A stretch of 64,000 nucleotides of DNA from Chitinophaga pendula (lineage in GTDB: Bacteria > Bacteroidota > Bacteroidia > Chitinophagales > Chitinophagaceae). The DNA lies in NCBI RefSeq assembly GCF_020386615.1, contig NZ_CP077769.1:4340001-4404000 (forward strand), read 5' to 3'. This document shows, piece by piece, positions 47,391-56,749 of this stretch (the first letter of the stretch is position 1; the number at the start of each line of letters is the position of its first letter). Under the pieces are notes generated by a model that saw nothing but the letters and a program-made list of their open reading frames with translations, was not told where the DNA came from and searched no databases. The position numbers and the translations under genes are program-made.

Positions 47391-47454
47391 GGATCAGTAG
47401 TAAAAGGTTTTCATCAAAACAAGCGCATACTGATCCACTAACGAATCAGTATGC
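47391..47454 (+). promoter_or_regulatory. Leader with mutually exclusive stem-loops over a kinase start codon
   Basis: Segment 1 GGATCAGTA (47391-47399), segment 2 GCATACTGATCC (47425-47436), segment 3 ATCAGTATGC (47445-47454). Segment 2 can pair fully with 1 (9 bp) or with 3 (10 bp, 10-nt loop), and segment 3 includes the start ATG at 47451. A -7-like TATATTTA at 47380-47387 would start transcription near segment 1. Alternatively these are three copies of a protein site (ATCAGTA). Confidence 0.5.
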
Positions 47455-48491
47455 ATAGACTTATTAAAACATTACTGATCTGTATACTCATTGGTCTTGC
47501 CTTTGGTACGTACTTGTATATTGCATTTGATCACCGTTTGATCCGCATATTTAAATCGCTTTTATCGAGCGTCACGATAGGTATATTAATGATGTACTGT
47601 ATATACTACCGGCATTATTTCATCCATGTTACAGCTTCCCAGCCAGGCAAGGCCATTATCATGACTGTAGCTCTGATAGTTGCAGCAGTAGCCGGCACTA
47701 TTATTATCTTCCTGGTACAATCGCTACTTCCTTCAGCACCTGCCTTCCGGTGGGCGAACGGCAGCGATACTTATCTTTTGAATATATTGATCGTTCTGGT
47801 AACCGGACTTCCTATTTATATGAGTGAGGAGTGGAAGGGCCAGCTTAACTCCAGGATGCTGGTACAACAGTATCGTGTATTGCAACTGGAGCAGCAACAG
47901 ACGCTTTTCGAGCTGGAGTTATTGCGGGCAAAGATCAATTCACATTTTCTTTACAACATACATAATACTATTGCGGGGCTTATTACTGAAGCCCCTTCCA
48001 AGGCGGAGTCTCTTGTATTGTTGTTGTCTAAATTCTTCCGGTCTACTTTAACAAAAGACAATGTTGTTTTTCATGCTGTTCATGAAGAGCTGGACATCCT
48101 TTATACTTATCTCGAAATGCAGCAGTTACGGTTTGGCAGCAGGATGACTTCTAACATCCATGTGGCTGCGATCACAAGATTTATTCTTATGCCCTCTTTT
48201 ATATTACAGCCTATAGTAGAGAATGCGGTCAAACATGGTATAGAAGCAAATGCGGGAGATGGATTTGTACACGTAGACATTCAATCTGACGATACTAATC
48301 TTACTTTTACTGTAGCAGACTCAGGTCCTCCATTTCCTGATTTACCAGGGGGTGGAGTCGGCCTGCAACTGGTGATGAACAAATTAAAGTTCCTTTACGA
48401 TACTAACTATCAAATTGTATTCAGCAATACTCCTGAAAAACATGTCCGAATTACCATTCCCCGGCAGCCTGACAACCTTGCTTGTAGATGA
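47451..48491 (+). CDS. LytS-type sensor histidine kinase beside the lanthipeptide cluster
   Basis: 346 residues with four membrane helices in the first 125 residues and almost no periplasmic loops. Phospho-accepting His165 in KINSHFLYNIHNTIAGL, where the usual NPHF is NSHF. HATPase part has LQPIVENAVKHGI and GVGLQLVMNKL. Likely senses a hydrophobic or membrane-inserted peptide. The regulator gene starts 50 bases before its end. Convergent with, and adjacent to, the C39 peptidase gene. Confidence 0.9.
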   Translation: MHRLIKTLLICILIGLAFGTYLYIAFDHRLIRIFKSLLSSVTIGILMMYCIYYRHYFIHVTASQPGKAIIMTVALIVAAVAGTIIIFLVQSLLPSAPAFRWANGSDTYLLNILIVLVTGLPIYMSEEWKGQLNSRMLVQQYRVLQLEQQQTLFELELLRAKINSHFLYNIHNTIAGLITEAPSKAESLVLLLSKFFRSTLTKDNVVFHAVHEELDILYTYLEMQQLRFGSRMTSNIHVAAITRFILMPSFILQPIVENAVKHGIEANAGDGFVHVDIQSDDTNLTFTVADSGPPFPDLPGGGVGLQLVMNKLKFLYDTNYQIVFSNTPEKHVRITIPRQPDNLACR

Positions 48492-49215
48492 TGAAGAGGT
48501 TGCCATCAGCAGATTAAAAAAGCTCTTGCAGGTGCATCCGGAAATACATATTACCGGAGCGGCTACTGATGGAAGACAAGCTATTACCTTCATTAACCGG
48601 CATAAGCCGGCATTGGTATTTCTGGATATACAGCTGCCAGGTATTAATGGATTCGATTTGCTTTCAGCGTTGGAATATATGCCATTGGTGGTTTTTGTTA
48701 CTGCTTACGATGCTTATGCGATAAAAGCGTTTGAGATAAATTCGCTGGACTATCTCCTCAAGCCAGTGGTACCGGAGCGCCTTGCGGTGACCATCAAACG
48801 TATTATTGCACATTACGCAGATAACGTTGATGTGTTGTCGAAGATAAAGACGTTACTGACTAACCAGCCGAGCAGCGAGACTATCAGTACTATCCCTGTG
48901 AAGACGGGGAATAAGACCATGCTTGTACAGGTGGGTGATATTCACTTTTTAGAGGCACGTGAAAAATATTGCTATATACATACTAAAAGCGAGTCTTACC
49001 TGACTGACTTTACACTTACTTACCTACAGGAGCGCCTTCCTGCGGGCTTCCTTCGTATACACCGGAGTTTTATCATCAATAAGCTAAAAATCCAGGAGAT
49101 ACATAAGTATCTGAAGGGCACTTATCTTTTGATCATGGCCGATGTGCATCAGACGCGGATCAAAAGTGCTTATTCTTATTCGGAGATCATCAAGCAACAG
49201 TTGCTATTATTCTAG
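48442..49215 (+). CDS. LytTR-family response regulator beside the lanthipeptide cluster
   Basis: 257 residues from the ATG at 48442. Receiver with TLLVDDEEVAISRL, phospho-Asp in LVFLDIQLPGINGF, FVTAYD and YLLKPV; then a LytTR domain (FLEAREKYCYIHT, FLRIHRSFIINKLKI). A TTG at 48415 would lengthen it by 9 residues. Its 3' end overlaps the convergent C39 gene by 4 bases. Candidate regulator of the lanA promoter repeat at 53317. Confidence 0.9.
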   Translation: MSELPFPGSLTTLLVDDEEVAISRLKKLLQVHPEIHITGAATDGRQAITFINRHKPALVFLDIQLPGINGFDLLSALEYMPLVVFVTAYDAYAIKAFEINSLDYLLKPVVPERLAVTIKRIIAHYADNVDVLSKIKTLLTNQPSSETISTIPVKTGNKTMLVQVGDIHFLEAREKYCYIHTKSESYLTDFTLTYLQERLPAGFLRIHRSFIINKLKIQEIHKYLKGTYLLIMADVHQTRIKSAYSYSEIIKQQLLLF

Positions 49216-49685
49216 GTATTCGCGATGTGCGTATAGAATTTTTCTGAAGGGGACAATAGCAGCAGATATCCTTTCTCTTCGTCATACAGCCAGTTTTGCC
49301 TGAGGGTGTTGTTATCAACTATATGTTTACCACGAGCGGGGTCTGCCAGATAGTATTTCCCTTTTTTTGCATTTATCTTATATAAGACCACAAAATGGGA
49401 TGCTGTCCAATGTAAGATACAAGGCAGGGGTATAGTATCTGTAAGTTGCCGGATGGTGGTAGCGCCACTGATGGTAAGAAATCCCAGTTGTTGGGCTGCT
49501 TTATCGATATTATGCAGGCTGGCACCTTGTTCGGTGAGCTGTGAAATCCCGTTGAGATAATCAGGGTGGAATTTGCGGCCATAATACCTGGCGATCATGC
49601 GGATGCAGGCAGGGCCACAATCCTTGTTATGCAGCTGTTTGTAAAAAGGGAAAAGATACCGTTGTTTTAATGCTGTCCAATACAT
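49212..49685 (-). CDS. Free-standing C39 leader peptidase (no ABC transporter)
   Basis: 157 residues. Oxyanion Gln17, nucleophile Cys23 (NKDCGPACIRM), His97 (TASHFVVLY) and Asp115 (LADPARG) are all present, so the domain looks active. It stops at LLLSPSEKFYTHIANT, precisely where the membrane domain of a PCAT/LanT exporter would begin. Third gene after lanA and lanM, 15 bases from lanM. It probably removes the lanthipeptide leader after the GA/AG site; export must be by another transporter not in this window. Confidence 0.85.
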   Translation of the reverse strand: MYWTALKQRYLFPFYKQLHNKDCGPACIRMIARYYGRKFHPDYLNGISQLTEQGASLHNIDKAAQQLGFLTISGATTIRQLTDTIPLPCILHWTASHFVVLYKINAKKGKYYLADPARGKHIVDNNTLRQNWLYDEEKGYLLLLSPSEKFYTHIANT

Positions 49686-49700
49686 TGTTTCCGGTATTTT

Positions 49701-52700
49701 TTAGTCCAGCAAGGCAACTGCTTTGTATATGTCCGGGCGCGCGAATCGCAGGAGCTGATATCCTATTCCTGATAATCCCAACATAAATCCGGGGTTCTCC
49801 ACGCCCAATGCGACACCGCAGGTGTATCCATCTCTTCCGGTTTGTTGTAACAAGGTGGTTACCATCCTGTAGGTATCTGTTAGCAGTACCTGGTCGTCGA
49901 AGTGTAGGGCAGCAGATAGGAGTAGTTCCAGGTTTCCCATATCTCCATGGCAGATAGATTGGTTGGTACCTAATCCGCTTTCACGGGTAGTAGCGATGGC
50001 GACCCGGATATCTTTGGTAATGGACTCCAGTGGAAGATGGCGATGTATTTTTATGCGGCTCAGGCCTATGCCAGCTGCGCCATGGCACCAGGCGATCATA
50101 TGATAGTGTTCCTGGTGAGAAAGTTCCTGGTTACGTACCTGCCGTTTGTCCATCCAGTTACCTATTGACGGCATGAAAAGGCTGTTTTCGAATTCCAATG
50201 CTGCTATTGCATGATGTTTGTATTTTTCCATACCTGTCAATCCATATAGTTCCGACAGTGCCAACGCTATACCAGCGGCACCATGCCCCAGGCCTCCCAG
50301 GACATTACCGGTAATATTATTCCTCCAGCCTATCCCCTGCTCCAGTTGTTCTGCATCGGCTATTATCTTATCTCCCAATTTGGTCATAGTTGCTAACAGG
50401 CTTTCCTCTTGCTGTTGCAGATACAATATTTTAAGTGCACATATGATACCTGCGGCGCCGCTGATGATATCATGATCTATTATCTCTTCACAATGATCTA
50501 CTATAAAGCGGGCACATTTCATGGCATGTTCCTGCAGGGAAGGTTGTTGCATAAAATAGCTGAGATGGTAGCAGCTATAGGCTATGCCGGCGCACCCGTC
50601 GAATGCGCCCATATTTTGTGTAAAGCTTGCCTGCAAGAGATGATCGGATATTTGTAACATCTTATTGACGCAACGATCTGCCAATTCTTTAAACGCTGCC
50701 TGCTTTGTTTCGTGATATAATGCTCCCAGGAAGAGGGCTACGCCTGGCAGGCCGCTATAGAGGTCTGTTTGCAGGGGTTTTACATCAAAATTATCATTAT
50801 CTACGGCGATCAGGCTTACCCACTGTGCGTTGTCGTCTTGTGTGATGGCCAGTTCGGCTAATCTTTCTCCTATTGCGCAGGCGGCGTTGATCAAAGCATT
50901 TTTGTCCGGACTTCCGACGGCAGGTATAATATGATACCGTTTCTTATATGCATACTGGATCGTATCTGCATGCCTGGCGGTAGAAGAAGCCAGGGCAGCC
51001 CTTATAAACCAACATTGCTGCTCCATATCAGTGGTTGATAGTTGCCGGAGTTTGTCGGTCACTTCTTGTTGTCCGGAATTTGAGAAAAAGGAGGTGGTCG
51101 TTAATTTGTTGGCGCTGTATATATTTTTTTCCGAAGGGATGGCATTAAAAAAGGGTACATCCCTATTTTGTAAGGCTGTAATTTCTGCCGGAACGATATG
51201 TCGATAGGCATTGGTACGCGGTTCGGATTGCCATAACAAGTTAAATAGGGCGTCCTGTTCCAGTGCGTTCCGAAGGTGGTCCGGATGGAAAGCTGTTTTC
51301 AGTAGTTGAGAATAGGCAGCGGTAGGGCGTAATAAGATCCTGACATGGGTATCAAAACATGTAGGTAGCAGGGAAGTTGTATTCAACAATTCGTCGCGGT
51401 GTTCTTTTATGAGTTGATAACAATGTCTGAAGGCATTGTTGATGATGTCAGCATACTCGAGCGGTTGCACCAGTTGTTCATTGAAGCGGGGAATATTTGT
51501 ACCCGCCTTGAACTGGGCCTGTCGTTTCCCACTTCTCATGTGATCAGTAGCGGTATTTTCCCAGGTAGGTACTGGTTTGGGTATTTCTCTTCCATCTATG
51601 TTAGTGATACCGCTCATATCGATGACGCCCTCTTCCACATACATTTTAAAGGGCAGCAGGTGTATGTTAAGTACGGACTGTCTTATTTTGCCGGTGACAT
51701 TGCCATCGAGTGTATCTTCCACAGGCAGCGGATCAGGATGGAACAGGCTCTCGAGGTCTATCAGCATGGGGTGCGGGCCATTTGCGATGATGTTCTCGTA
51801 GTGAAAATCAGTGGCATTGATGGCGTATAGGACTGCCAGCAGGTATCCTATCCTGGTGTAAAATTCCTGTACGTCTGTGGTTGTGCGGCAGGGATGGTAA
51901 GAGATGAATTCCATCCATCCATATTGTTGTTTATCGAGTACTTTCAACAATTTGAAAGCGGGTTGGAGTTGTTTGCTATTAAACCATTGCAGGAGTTGTT
52001 GAAAGTGTCCATCGAGGGATAGGCTGCGTGGTTTGTAAACCAGCCGTTTGCCAGAAGTGAATGTATAAATTACTACTGTTTGTCCGCCATTATGTCGATC
52101 TCCGGCGTTCATCCGGAGGCCGGTGATCTTGTCGTCGCCGGCTATATCAAAATGTTGTCTGATATCCTGCCAGTCGTCGTTTAGCCGCTGTAGTAAGGTA
52201 AAACAATTTAATTCCCATCGTTGCATGTATTCATAGATGCAGCGAAAGAGTACGGGGTATTCTGCTACAAGGGTGTTCCTTTTTTCCGGTGTGGATAGCA
52301 GGTGTATAAAACTTTCGAATCTTTCTCCGGGTGTATTTCCCTGCAGCTCGTTTTTGACCCGGGCGACATTTAGTTCCAGTACGAGGGTGCGGTCTACCAT
52401 TTCGAATACGGAGACAGCTATTTCGTTTAGTAGTTGGGGTATTATACGTTCCAGTTCGAAGGGACCTTTTTTTTGATGTGCGGTATATTGCCGGAGGGCG
52501 TTGGTCAGTTTTGTGACATAGGGGATAATAATAGGATCAGCCACATTAAAGAAGCCAGCCAATGGTATCTGTCCGGTTATCAGTGTTGCAAAGCTACTGT
52601 TACTTTGATCATAGGTGTTATACAGGCGAATAATGCTGGAGGTCCAATCCGGCAGCGGGATATCCAGTTGGCTTACCAAGGCGGGAAATTCTTCTGTACA

Positions 52701-52943
52701 GACGGCTGCCAGCTCGTCTCTGCTGATTTGCCGGGAGGTTAGCCATTCATCGAGGTATACCGGTTCATTGTATGGCGGCTGGGTAATCAAACGTTGATAA
52801 GCTTGTATTGCGGCCGGGCTGCTGCTTAGGGTGACCAGGGCATTTCTCAATGCAGCGTTACTGGTTACCAACTGTATACGTTCATACAGGTACAGGCCGT
52901 TTAGCAGCAAGGCGGGGCTTAGCTCTGTATCCACTGTCATCAT
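49701..52943 (-). CDS. lanM: Class II lanthipeptide synthetase LanM
   Basis: 1080 residues. N-terminal kinase-like dehydratase domain has RLVYKPRSLSLD, DFHYENIIANG and MLIDLESLF for phosphorylation and elimination at Ser/Thr. The C-terminal LanC-like cyclase keeps all three zinc ligands: Cys953 (AWCHGAAGIG), Cys998 and His999 (SICHGDMGNLE). It should dehydrate Ser/Thr and add Cys thiols to form (methyl)lanthionine. It lies 80 bases downstream of the precursor gene, in the same operon. Confidence 0.95.
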   Translation of the reverse strand: MMTVDTELSPALLLNGLYLYERIQLVTSNAALRNALVTLSSSPAAIQAYQRLITQPPYNEPVYLDEWLTSRQISRDELAAVCTEEFPALVSQLDIPLPDWTSSIIRLYNTYDQSNSSFATLITGQIPLAGFFNVADPIIIPYVTKLTNALRQYTAHQKKGPFELERIIPQLLNEIAVSVFEMVDRTLVLELNVARVKNELQGNTPGERFESFIHLLSTPEKRNTLVAEYPVLFRCIYEYMQRWELNCFTLLQRLNDDWQDIRQHFDIAGDDKITGLRMNAGDRHNGGQTVVIYTFTSGKRLVYKPRSLSLDGHFQQLLQWFNSKQLQPAFKLLKVLDKQQYGWMEFISYHPCRTTTDVQEFYTRIGYLLAVLYAINATDFHYENIIANGPHPMLIDLESLFHPDPLPVEDTLDGNVTGKIRQSVLNIHLLPFKMYVEEGVIDMSGITNIDGREIPKPVPTWENTATDHMRSGKRQAQFKAGTNIPRFNEQLVQPLEYADIINNAFRHCYQLIKEHRDELLNTTSLLPTCFDTHVRILLRPTAAYSQLLKTAFHPDHLRNALEQDALFNLLWQSEPRTNAYRHIVPAEITALQNRDVPFFNAIPSEKNIYSANKLTTTSFFSNSGQQEVTDKLRQLSTTDMEQQCWFIRAALASSTARHADTIQYAYKKRYHIIPAVGSPDKNALINAACAIGERLAELAITQDDNAQWVSLIAVDNDNFDVKPLQTDLYSGLPGVALFLGALYHETKQAAFKELADRCVNKMLQISDHLLQASFTQNMGAFDGCAGIAYSCYHLSYFMQQPSLQEHAMKCARFIVDHCEEIIDHDIISGAAGIICALKILYLQQQEESLLATMTKLGDKIIADAEQLEQGIGWRNNITGNVLGGLGHGAAGIALALSELYGLTGMEKYKHHAIAALEFENSLFMPSIGNWMDKRQVRNQELSHQEHYHMIAWCHGAAGIGLSRIKIHRHLPLESITKDIRVAIATTRESGLGTNQSICHGDMGNLELLLSAALHFDDQVLLTDTYRMVTTLLQQTGRDGYTCGVALGVENPGFMLGLSGIGYQLLRFARPDIYKAVALLD

Positions 52944-52979
52944 GAGGTCGTTATTGTAGAGATGGGTAGGGCTGTAGCT

Positions 52980-53007
52980 ACAGGCTGACCATTGCTGATC
53001 AGCCTGT
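52980..53007 (-). terminator. Intercistronic hairpin between lanA and lanM
   Basis: ACAGGCTGA and TCAGCCTGT form a 9-bp stem with a 10-nt loop, no U-tract. Such hairpins in lantibiotic operons let part of the transcripts continue and keep precursor mRNA in excess. Confidence 0.6.
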
Positions 53008-53023
53008 ATGTGGCAGGTTACTA

Positions 53024-53278
53024 TTAGTTAAAGATATTTACGAATGGGTTACAGCTTTGGCCGCCCATACATTCACCGCTCCAGGTACAGATCAAGCCAC
53101 TTGAGTTAGCTTGTTGTGCCTGTGATTTTGTGCCGGCGCCCATCAGCATGGCATCCAGTCCTTCGCGAGCATCTTCGATAGGATTAGCGGGAAGGGTTGC
53201 CAGTTGCTCAGCGGATAATTGGTTACGATAGGATGCATCTTTCCATGCACGAACGACATCAACTTGTGTGATTTTCAT
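53024..53278 (-). CDS. lanA: Class II lanthipeptide precursor with CTxSxEC core
   Basis: 84 residues. The leader (VVRAWKDASYRNQLS, LPANPIEDAREGLDAML) matches mersacidin/lichenicidin-type leaders; cleavage is predicted near MGAG, residues 46-49. The core (about 50-84) has Cys64, Cys70, Cys76 and Ser/Thr at 50, 52, 59, 60, 65, 67, 75. Residues 64-70, CTWSGEC, fit the T-x-S/T-x-E-C ring of mersacidin and lacticin 481 that binds lipid II. At most three lanthionine rings. First gene of lanA-lanM-C39. Antibacterial activity is inferred. Confidence 0.9.
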   Translation of the reverse strand: MKITQVDVVRAWKDASYRNQLSAEQLATLPANPIEDAREGLDAMLMGAGTKSQAQQANSSGLICTWSGECMGGQSCNPFVNIFN

Positions 53279-54950: not shown

Positions 54951-56024
54951 ATGCCTGGACAATCTCTTCTTAACCGCAGCTGGCTGATCATACTTATTGT
55001 TTGGACGTTAGACACTTGTTTTACCAGTTTCCAGGTTCACATGCAGGGGATCTCATATTCCAGGGCGTTGACGCTGGCGCTTACGGGCTCTGTATTTTCG
55101 TGTTTGTGTGCTAGTTTTCTCAGTTATATATTGTTACCGAGGTTGATACGGCTACAGCGCTTGTTGTTATTTATTGTATTAGCGGTGTTGCTTTGTTTGT
55201 TGGTAAGCTGTGTTATTGTGTATTTCTGTCTGCCATTGTTATGTAGTTCGTATCAGGATTTGCTGATTACACCCCGTAGTTGCAGTTTTATATCCCTGGT
55301 ACCGGGTTATTTCATTAGTGTGCTTTTTACCAGTGGCACTGTTTGCGGGTTTCGTTTTTACCAGGAGTATGCGACTACTGTTATAGCGCATGAGCAGTTG
55401 CGTACTGCGCACCTGGAGGCGGAGCTTACCTTGTTGCGTGGGCAGCTCAATCCTCATTTTGTTTTCAATATGATGAACGGGATACACGTGTTGATCCAGC
55501 GGGATGCGCGGCAGGCGGCGGACATGGTACTGGAGTTTTCCGATATGCTTCGGTTCCAGCTATATGACTGTTCGCAGCCTTTTATATCTATACAACAGGA
55601 AATCAACTATTTGCAGCATTATGTAAGTGTGGAGCGAAAACGAAGGGGGGATGTGTTAAAAGTGGACTGTTATTGGGGAGATGCCTTACCTTCCGGTTAC
55701 ATTTCTCCATTGATACTAACGCCATTTATTGAAAATGCTTTTAAACATGTGTCTTGCGGGGAGGGAACGGCTGGTTTTATACGCGTATCACTTTATGTGG
55801 AGGGGCATCAATTGTTCCTGACTGTAGATAACAGCCGGGAGTCCTTACCGGCTATTCCTGACCCGCTACACCGGGGGAAAGGGATAGGATTGGCCAATGT
55901 GAAGAAGCGATTATCGTTGCTCTATCCGGGCCGGCATTTACTACAGATTAAAGAAACGGCGGAGCGTTTTGCCGTGTTCCTTGAAATTGATATCAGTCCA
56001 CAATATCCAAAACAGCATAATTGA
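54951..56024 (+). CDS. LytS-type sensor histidine kinase (second flanking system)
   Basis: 357 residues, four membrane helices, His in LRGQLNPHFVFNMMNGIH, HATPase with LTPFIENAFKHV and GIGLANVKKRL. No extra sensor domain. The regulator's ATG follows 5 bases after its stop. A dyad CGTTA-N14-TAACG is found at 54860-54883 upstream. Role unknown, but position next to the lanthipeptide cluster allows a part in immunity or sensing. Confidence 0.9.
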   Translation: MPGQSLLNRSWLIILIVWTLDTCFTSFQVHMQGISYSRALTLALTGSVFSCLCASFLSYILLPRLIRLQRLLLFIVLAVLLCLLVSCVIVYFCLPLLCSSYQDLLITPRSCSFISLVPGYFISVLFTSGTVCGFRFYQEYATTVIAHEQLRTAHLEAELTLLRGQLNPHFVFNMMNGIHVLIQRDARQAADMVLEFSDMLRFQLYDCSQPFISIQQEINYLQHYVSVERKRRGDVLKVDCYWGDALPSGYISPLILTPFIENAFKHVSCGEGTAGFIRVSLYVEGHQLFLTVDNSRESLPAIPDPLHRGKGIGLANVKKRLSLLYPGRHLLQIKETAERFAVFLEIDISPQYPKQHN

Positions 56025-56029
56025 ACAAG

Positions 56030-56749
56030 ATGGAAATTAGATGTTTAGTTGCAGATGATGAAGCGTTGGCCAGAGAGGGGTTAGAAAACTATATACAGGC
56101 AAGTGAATATCTGACGCTAATGGCGTCGTGCAACAGTGCTATGGCGGCCAGGGAGATATTAGAAACGGCGCCGGTCGACCTTATGTTCTTGGACATCAAT
56201 ATGCCGAGGATGAGTGGTTTGCATCTCCTGGAGACGCTTACTACGCCACCGGTTACGATATTGGTCACTGCTTATCCGGATTATGCGCTGGAGGGTTTTC
56301 GGCTGGATGTATTGGATTATCTTTTAAAACCTGTTTCTCCTGATCGTTTTGCCAAGTCGGTCCAGAAGGCGCTGTCGTACTTCAGCTTGCGCAGGCCGGC
56401 ACCGTTGGTCCAAACGAATGCTATTGCTGATCATATTTTTGTAAAGCACAAGCAGGTATATGAGCAGGTGATGTTATCAGATATTTTGTATGTGGAGGGT
56501 ATGCAGAACTATGTGGTGATACAGACGATACGTACTAAAATTGTTGCTTATCTGACTTTTAAGAGTGTCGAGCAGCAGTTACCATCTGACACCTTTCTGC
56601 GGATACATAAATCTTATATTATCAATTTACGGCAGGTGCATACGGTAGATAGTAATATGGTACAGATAGGGCCTTATGCGTTGCCGGTAAGTAGAAGTCA
56701 GCGTGACCTGCTGATGCGGGTGGTGAATAGCCGATTGTTGTCGAAATAG
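56030..56749 (+). CDS. LytTR-family response regulator (second flanking system)
   Basis: 239 residues from the ATG at 56030 (TTG at 56021 overlaps the kinase). Receiver: CLVADDEALAREGL, LMFLDINMPRMSGL, LVTAYPDY, YLLKPVSP. LytTR: ILYVEGMQNYVVIQT, FLRIHKSYIINLRQV. Partner of the preceding kinase. Confidence 0.9.
   Translation: MEIRCLVADDEALAREGLENYIQASEYLTLMASCNSAMAAREILETAPVDLMFLDINMPRMSGLHLLETLTTPPVTILVTAYPDYALEGFRLDVLDYLLKPVSPDRFAKSVQKALSYFSLRRPAPLVQTNAIADHIFVKHKQVYEQVMLSDILYVEGMQNYVVIQTIRTKIVAYLTFKSVEQQLPSDTFLRIHKSYIINLRQVHTVDSNMVQIGPYALPVSRSQRDLLMRVVNSRLLSK

What the first reader, a model, noticed from the sequence alone, without database searches (positions are those of the whole stretch)
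49212..53278. Class II lanthipeptide cluster with a lipid-II-type ring motif in a Bacteroidota genome
Precursor, LanM and C39 peptidase form one minus-strand operon. Core residues 64-70 (CTWSGEC) fit the T-x-S/T-x-E-C ring of mersacidin and lacticin 481 that binds the lipid II pyrophosphate. Known lipid-II-binding lantibiotics come from Firmicutes and Actinobacteria; known Chitinophaga lanthipeptides (pinensins) are class I and antifungal. A class II, mersacidin-like one here would be new to my knowledge. The sequence shows the motif and intact LanM zinc ligands; activity is inferred.
Basis: partly seen in the sequence, partly recalled or inferred. Interest (0 to 1): 0.82.

Follow-up and report, generated by a model that had tools for sequence, protein, structure and literature searches.

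The report
Lipid-II-type class II lantibiotic in Chitinophaga
A bacterium of the Gram-negative genus Chitinophaga carries a small gene cluster for a ring-shaped peptide whose core looks like known cell-wall-blocking antibiotics of Gram-positive bacteria, which would be an unusual source for such a molecule if it is made and active.

Summary
A minus-strand operon encodes an 84-aa precursor (53024-53278), an intact LanM (49701-52943) and a C39 peptidase (49212-49685) in a Chitinophaga genome. The precursor passes the mersacidin/lichenicidin leader model; residues 64-70 are CTWSGEC. Homologous precursors from an unnamed close relative, C. tropicalis and two Adhaeribacter species share the core: 5 of 5 keep S-x4-C-[TS]-x-S-G-E-C-x-G-G-x-x-C-N-P-[FY]. 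The closest characterised core is plantaricin C (NSSGDICTLTSEC against NSSGLICTWSGEC), a lipid II binder, but the plantaricin C family cut-off is not met. LanM is 27% identical to the plantaricin C LanM and groups with Bacteroidota-type LanMs; the leaders look cyanobacterial. The unnamed relative has the same stand-alone C39, so a recent break is unlikely. Modification, export and lipid II binding are inferred. TIGR03898 precursors are rare: 2 of 79 Chitinophaga and 1 of 395 sampled Bacteroidia genomes, the window's own included.

The parts
53024..53278 (-). lanA: 84-aa precursor with mersacidin-type leader
   Evidence: TIGR03898 40.9 bits, cut-off 23.5; 4 homologues with the same core pattern
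53135..53278 (-). leader, residues 1-48, ending in the double-glycine-type site Gly47-Ala48 (cleavage point inferred)
   Evidence: compared by eye with the GG ends of the C. tropicalis and Adhaeribacter leaders; TIGR03898 match at residues 7-33
53027..53134 (-). core, residues 49-84 (GTKSQAQQANSSGLICTWSGECMGGQSCNPFVNIFN): 7 Ser/Thr, 3 Cys
   Evidence: start inferred
53069..53089 (-). lipid-II-type motif CTWSGEC, residues 64-70; predicted rings Ser59-Cys64, Thr65-Cys70, Ser67-Cys76, with Ser60 as Dha (by analogy with plantaricin C)
   Evidence: ring assignment inferred
52979..53008 (-). 13-bp hairpin between lanA and lanM, probable attenuator or mRNA end stabiliser
   Evidence: 80-nt intergene MFE -24.3 kcal/mol, z -4.2, 0 of 200 shuffles as low; hairpins at the same place in L009, L010, L024 (no shuffles)
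49701..52943 (-). lanM: 1080-aa class II lanthionine synthetase, catalytic residues intact
   Evidence: TIGR03897 914 bits; LicM2 6st5 and CylM 5dzt by sequence; residues
49212..49685 (-). stand-alone C39 peptidase, 157 aa, corresponding to the N-terminal domain of a LanT transporter; Cys23, His97, Asp115 present (roles recalled)
   Evidence: PF03412; 52% identity to residues 4-147 of the 742-aa C39-ABC of C. tropicalis; match to solved C39 domains

Best explanation
The operon makes a class II lanthipeptide antibiotic. LanM recognises the WKDxxYR-type leader, dehydrates Ser/Thr and closes about three thioether rings (predicted Ser59-Cys64, Thr65-Cys70, Ser67-Cys76). The stand-alone C39 peptidase cuts after Gly47-Ala48, and the peptide leaves through a C39-ABC/HlyD exporter encoded elsewhere in the genome. 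Outside, the T-x-S-G-E-C ring binds the pyrophosphate of lipid II of Gram-positive neighbours and stops cell-wall synthesis; the producer's outer membrane gives most of its self-protection. Shown: the genes, the residues, the conserved core, the absence of a linked exporter. Inferred: modification, ring pattern, cleavage, export in trans, target, self-protection.
For: Leader and LanM pass curated models. Core motif conserved in 5 of 5 precursors whose LanMs are 81% down to 38% identical to the window's. The window core shares 9 of 13 residues with plantaricin C over NSSGxIC-T-x-[ST]-x-EC; plantaricin C forms a complex with lipid II (PMC6107846, abstract and passages). Lipid II pyrophosphate binding by this ring region is modelled from NMR for nukacin ISK-1 (PMC6156582, passages); for mersacidin, changing Glu17 to Ala abolishes or markedly reduces activity (PMC9863751, passages). 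C. tropicalis carries ABC genes next to its homologue whose best NCBIfam matches are lantibiotic-protection families, both below cut-off: ATPase TIGR03740 216.6 under 309.75, permease TIGR03732 52 under 145.2. An unnamed relative has a precursor 98%, LanM 81% and C39 81% identical, placed on one contig by their shared longest-contig length of 271,011, as expected if the peptide is the most constrained part. The own genome has five full-length C39-ABC proteins elsewhere; one (L080 6873-9065) is 60% identical to the C. tropicalis exporter, and my filter found no precursor near it.
Against: No exporter and no immunity gene in the cluster; the only match to the C. tropicalis permease in the genome is 26% identical. 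The plantaricin C family cut-off is not met (20.8 against 29). Class II peptides of other Gram-negatives need not act on lipid II: nostolysamide C gave no lipid II response (PMC13060382, passages), and mersacidin-type leaders can carry unrelated cores (PMC9576775, passages). The role of the Glu in binding is itself called unclear, and in simulations of lichenicidin alpha it did not contact pyrophosphate (PMC9863751, passages). In two Adhaeribacter cores the first ring residue is Ser, not Thr. No expression, mass or activity data.
Confidence: 0.6

Rival explanations
1. The peptide is a real, modified lanthipeptide but does not act on lipid II: it is a membrane-active or antifungal peptide, or a signal, and the TxSxEC ring is kept for structural reasons.
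For: Pinensins of Chitinophaga are antifungal and disrupt membranes, and nostolysamide C of Nostoc, class II, does not involve lipid II (PMC13060382, passages). The Bacteroidota cores share a C-terminal G-G-x-x-C-N-P-[FY] that the six Bacillota rows aligned lack.
Against: Glu and the spacing are invariant in 5 of 5 and match plantaricin C across the preceding ring too; C. tropicalis has lantibiotic-protection-like genes.
Confidence: 0.25
2. The cluster in this strain is decaying: the exporter lost its ABC half and immunity genes, so the peptide is no longer secreted.
For: C39 alone where C. tropicalis and Adhaeribacter aerolatus have a full C39-ABC plus HlyD; no linked immunity genes.
Against: An unnamed relative has the same stand-alone C39 (159 aa, 81% identical), a full-length LanM and a 98% identical precursor; at this divergence unused genes would be expected to break. 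C39 Cys, His and Asp are kept. Selection was not measured: the relative's DNA was not among the loci I fetched.
Confidence: 0.12
3. Ordinary recent transfer of a Gram-positive plantaricin C/mersacidin cluster into Chitinophaga.
For: Core resemblance to plantaricin C; patchy distribution, 2 of 79 Chitinophaga genomes.
Against: LanM is 27% identical to the plantaricin C LanM and lies in a group of Bacteroidota-type LanMs (SH-aLRT 100) that holds no Bacillota row; operon GC 46.8% against 47.8% for the window.
Confidence: 0.03

Closest known systems
Plantaricin C (Lactiplantibacillus plantarum LL441, plasmid pLL441-1; L101)
   Same: NSSGxICT-x-[ST]-x-EC core, LanM, class II, double-glycine-type leader, precursor-then-LanM gene order
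   Different: LanM 27% identical; window core has one Cys after the motif instead of two and ends GGQSCNPFVNIFN; no linked full LanT or immunity ABC genes, which L101 has
Mersacidin / lichenicidin alpha group
   Same: Leader passes TIGR03898; TxTxEC-type ring (PMC7268733, passages)
   Different: Ser at the third ring position and Gly before Glu; no decarboxylase in the operon; no linked full LanT
Lacticin 481 / nukacin ISK-1 group
   Same: T-x-S-x-E-C ring A (sequence recalled), lipid II binding in nukacin (PMC6156582, passages)
   Different: NF040664, lacticin 481 family, not matched at E 1; an extra upstream ring Ser59-Cys64 is predicted
C. tropicalis and Adhaeribacter clusters (L009, L010, L024)
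   Same: Same leader type and core pattern, same LanM group, hairpin between lanA and lanM
   Different: Full C39-ABC and HlyD in L009 and L010 (L024 not examined for this); C. tropicalis also has lantibiotic-protection-like ABC genes
Pinensins (Chitinophaga pinensis)
   Same: Genus, lanthipeptide
   Different: Class I, antifungal (PMC13060382, passages)

Membership tests
Class II lanthipeptide | Single LanM with DUF4135 dehydratase and LanC-like cyclase next to a precursor | tested here: met
Class II lanthipeptide | Zinc ligands and dehydratase residues intact | tested here: met
   C953, C998, H999; K304, D379, H381, N384, D396; residue roles recalled from CylM work
Class II lanthipeptide | Dehydration and thioether rings in the product | not testable with these tools
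   needs mass spectrometry
Mersacidin/lichenicidin family (TIGR03898) | Precursor over curated cut-off | tested here: met
   40.9 against 23.5 bits
Plantaricin C family (NF000539) | Precursor over curated cut-off | tested here: not met
   20.8 against 29 bits, aligned 12-76; C. tropicalis 20.8 and Adhaeribacter aerolatus 15.6, also below
Lipid-II-binding class II lantibiotics | Tx[ST]xEC motif in the core, conserved in homologues | tested here: met
   window TWSGEC; [TS]xSGEC in 5 of 5 precursors, first residue Ser in 2 of 5
Lipid-II-binding class II lantibiotics | Binding of lipid II | not testable with these tools
   no assay
Lantibiotic cluster with dedicated LanT | C39 peptidase fused to an ABC exporter in the cluster | tested here: not met
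   C39 alone, 157 aa; five full-length C39-ABC proteins elsewhere in the genome
Lantibiotic cluster with LanFEG immunity | Immunity ABC genes in the cluster | tested here: not met
   none among the eight ORFs scanned between 47451 and 56749; only match to the C. tropicalis permease elsewhere 26% identical
Pinensin (class I) | LanB dehydratase and separate LanC | tested here: not met
   LanM instead

The most novel reading that the evidence does not exclude
Bacteroidota evolved, or acquired by exchange of the core alone, a lipid-II-binding lantibiotic on a LanM and leader system related to the cyanobacterial one. The plantaricin-C-like double ring would then have arisen independently of the Gram-positive lantibiotics, and in this lineage it is matured by a free C39 protease and exported in trans, with the outer membrane replacing dedicated immunity.
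Probability: 0.3. Interest if true: 0.68.

Novelty: new variant of a known kind. Interest (0 to 1): 0.5.

Why it matters
Lipid-II-binding lantibiotics are known from Gram-positive producers (recalled; the passages I read name no Bacteroidota example). A Gram-negative maker would test how such a peptide crosses two membranes without harming its producer, whether immunity genes are dispensable behind an outer membrane, and whether this pyrophosphate-binding ring evolved more than once. It also gives a compact core, with Gly beside the conserved Glu and a GGxxCNP[FY] end, that the Bacillota cores aligned do not have.

Tried and rejected
Rejected: chance motif (shuffles; conservation). Judged unlikely: recent truncation of the C39 gene (P0126). 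Rejected: the adjacent two-component system as a conserved cluster regulator. Its kinase has matches at E <= 1e-60 in 11 of 79 Chitinophaga genomes, the own one included; in the five of the ten other loci that I read over about 19 kb, tblastn at E 1e-10 shows no LanM, C39 or precursor, nor does the kinase appear in L009. Rejected: foreign composition. Considered but not claimed: that Bacteroidota LanMs are sister to cyanobacterial ones. The trees are unrooted, 'quick' and drawn at the midpoint; support for that side is 93 and 87.

Against a simple picture: one more Bacteroidota LanM, L006 (G761), falls outside the Bacteroidota-type group on a long branch in both trees. The Bacillota motif carrier L040 moved, to the side of the tree that holds Bacteroidota and Cyanobacteria, at a fork with support 12.

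Rows dropped: one search left out 16 of 64 loci and one search left out 11 of 65, because no LanM frame met my text filter; L007 and L008 are among them in both. In one search the L011 hit was discounted as an ORF overlapping LanM in another frame, and second hits in L040, L049 and L055 as spurious. One search scanned with two peptide patterns and kept 61 of 100 stretches, so LanMs without those peptides were not seen. Precursors beside the metagenomic LanMs P0008-P0016 were not seen.

Led nowhere: a plasmid search with the precursor gave 8 records, none named as Bacteroidota. The supplement of PMC7268733, whose text names lipid-II-motif families II 18 and II 32, could not be read (cap of zero), so one of them may be this group.
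Full report
What is there. The minus strand at 49212-53278 carries three genes in one direction: an 84-aa precursor, an 80-nt gap with a 13-bp hairpin, a 1080-aa LanM, a 15-nt gap, and a 157-aa C39 peptidase. The genome is one 7,663,439-base contig. It shares its genus with G006, whose contig of 232,312 bases and precursor are those of C. tropicalis NZ_WRXN01000013.1, hence Chitinophaga. LanM passes TIGR03897 (914 bits, cut-off 304); the precursor passes TIGR03898 (40.9, cut-off 23.5) and falls short of NF000539 plantaricin C (20.8, cut-off 29). By sequence, LanM matches the solved LicM2 (6st5) and CylM (5dzt), and the C39 protein matches solved C39 domains of PCAT and ComA transporters. Catalytic and zinc residues are present (roles recalled).

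Is the motif real? Residues 64-70 are CTWSGEC. Shuffling the core gives [ST]x[ST]xEC in 0.26% of 200,000 draws and S-x4-C-[ST]x[ST]xEC in 0.0025%. Better evidence is conservation. A protein search, limited to relatives sharing exact 5-residue words, gave 4 hits: an unnamed relative at 98%, C. tropicalis at 60%, and two weaker proteins with a related leader but another core. Among 61 loci that encode LanM relatives in named genomes, the 3 Bacteroidota loci (C. tropicalis, Adhaeribacter aerolatus, A. rhizoryzae) each have a precursor with the pattern. With the window and the unnamed relative, 5 of 5 keep S59, G61, C64, S67, G68, E69, C70, G72, G73, C76, N77 and P78. The first ring residue is Thr in 3 and Ser in 2. 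By my reading, 19 of 27 Bacillota loci also have a plausible precursor with the motif, and 0 of 31 cyanobacterial, chloroflexal, acidobacterial and myxococcal loci do; several of those contigs are short, so that zero is soft.

What it resembles. Aligned cores put the window near plantaricin C: NSSGLICTWSGEC against NSSGDICTLTSEC, 9 of 13 identical; the BLASTP alignment ends on this stretch. Plantaricin C has one Dha, one lanthionine and three methyllanthionines and forms a complex with lipid II (PMC6107846, abstract and passages). Rings Ser59-Cys64, Thr65-Cys70 and Ser67-Cys76, with Ser60 left as Dha, are predicted by that analogy; which residues pair in plantaricin C is recalled. For nukacin ISK-1, binding of the lipid II pyrophosphate by backbone amides in and next to ring A is proposed from NMR and docking (PMC6156582, passages). 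Replacing Glu17 of mersacidin abolishes or markedly reduces activity, though its role in binding is called unclear (PMC9863751, passages).

Where the enzyme comes from. The window LanM is 81% identical to that of the unnamed relative, 48% to C. tropicalis, and 34-42% to the rest of the 120 proteins listed of 921, cyanobacterial ones among them. Named Bacillota loci give 27-32%, the plantaricin C LanM 27%. In two quick trees 11 rows form one group with SH-aLRT 100: the window, its relative, C. tropicalis, two Adhaeribacter and six metagenomic proteins of unknown host and precursor. No Bacillota row is in it. Another Bacteroidota LanM, L006, lies outside it on a long branch. The leaders (WKDxxYR, LPxNP) resemble cyanobacterial and acidobacterial ones by eye. 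So enzyme and leader look unlike those of plantaricin C while the core looks like it. Convergence or exchange of the core both fit; the unrooted trees cannot decide.

The missing exporter. In C. tropicalis the genes run precursor, LanM, ABC ATPase, permease, 742-aa C39-ABC, HlyD. The ATPase and permease have lantibiotic-protection families as best NCBIfam matches, both below cut-off. Adhaeribacter aerolatus has precursor, LanM, 733-aa C39-ABC and HlyD. The window C39 protein aligns with residues 4-147 of the C. tropicalis exporter at 52% and stops there; its stop overlaps the end of a convergent response-regulator gene by four bases. The unnamed relative has the same short C39 protein (159 aa, 81%); that it lies beside its LanM and precursor is inferred from their shared longest-contig length, 271,011 bases. 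Five full-length C39-ABC proteins lie elsewhere in the genome. One (L080) is 60% identical to the C. tropicalis exporter, and my filter found no precursor near it. Of the other four, two sit by small GG-leader ORFs, one by a LanC-like gene, one in unclear surroundings. Export in trans is therefore plausible, not shown.

How common. TIGR03898 precursors: 2 of 79 Chitinophaga genomes, 2 of 394 family members sampled, 1 of 395 Bacteroidia sampled, each count including the window's own genome. LanM at E <= 1e-100: 4 of 395 Bacteroidota sampled, again with the own genome; within the 4.5-5.8 kb held, the other three show no precursor with the motif. Hairpins stand between precursor and LanM in L009, L010 and L024 as well (folded without shuffles), which suggests attenuation that keeps the precursor in excess, as in other lantibiotic operons (recalled).

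Literature. I made nine searches in the open PMC library (one search was for nukacin, for C. tropicalis). Their listings show no report of a class II, lipid-II-type lanthipeptide from Bacteroidota; some listings were partial (25 of 55, 10 of 32, 12 of 14). PMC7268733 (passages) says that only pinensins had been isolated from the phylum by 2020, gives TxTxEC as the mersacidin lipid II motif, and names uncharacterised families with such motifs whose members I could not see. PMC9576775 (passages) warns that mersacidin-type leaders can carry unrelated cores; here the core was checked separately. Most subscription journals are not covered.

Verdict. An accurate observation and a reasonable interpretation, improved by plantaricin C as the nearest model and by the missing export and immunity genes. 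It is a new variant of a known kind with a testable, unproven target.

Noticed in passing
L082:10463-12922 (-), G000:C1 4210462-4212921: Seven small ORFs with GGG leader ends and Cys-rich C-termini between a C39-ABC/HlyD pair and a 547-aa protein with C39, VKOR and thioredoxin domains; looks like a multi-peptide disulphide-rich bacteriocin cluster.
   Followed up: partly
L081:8394-12351 (-), G000:C1 3448393-3452350: C39-ABC next to a radical SAM protein (PF04055) and a 74-aa GG-leader peptide: possible radical-SAM peptide cluster.
   Followed up: no
L083:6847-14527 (+), G000:C1 3086846-3094526: C39-ABC followed by 901-, 307- and 639-aa ORFs, the last holding the LanC-like match: possible class I lanthipeptide cluster.
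   Followed up: no
window 47451-49215 (+) and 54951-56749 (+): Two histidine-kinase/LytTR-regulator pairs flank the operon; the first has relatives elsewhere in the genus not linked to LanM in the five loci read.
   Followed up: partly
L008:1495-3384 (-), G661: A Bacteroidota LanM-like ORF of 629 aa that matches only model positions 2-521, with no cyclase zinc motif in the ORF.
   Followed up: no
proteins P0001, P0006, P0126 of an unnamed relative: Precursor 98% identical to the window's while its LanM and C39 are 81%: the peptide seems to change far more slowly than its enzymes.
   Followed up: partly
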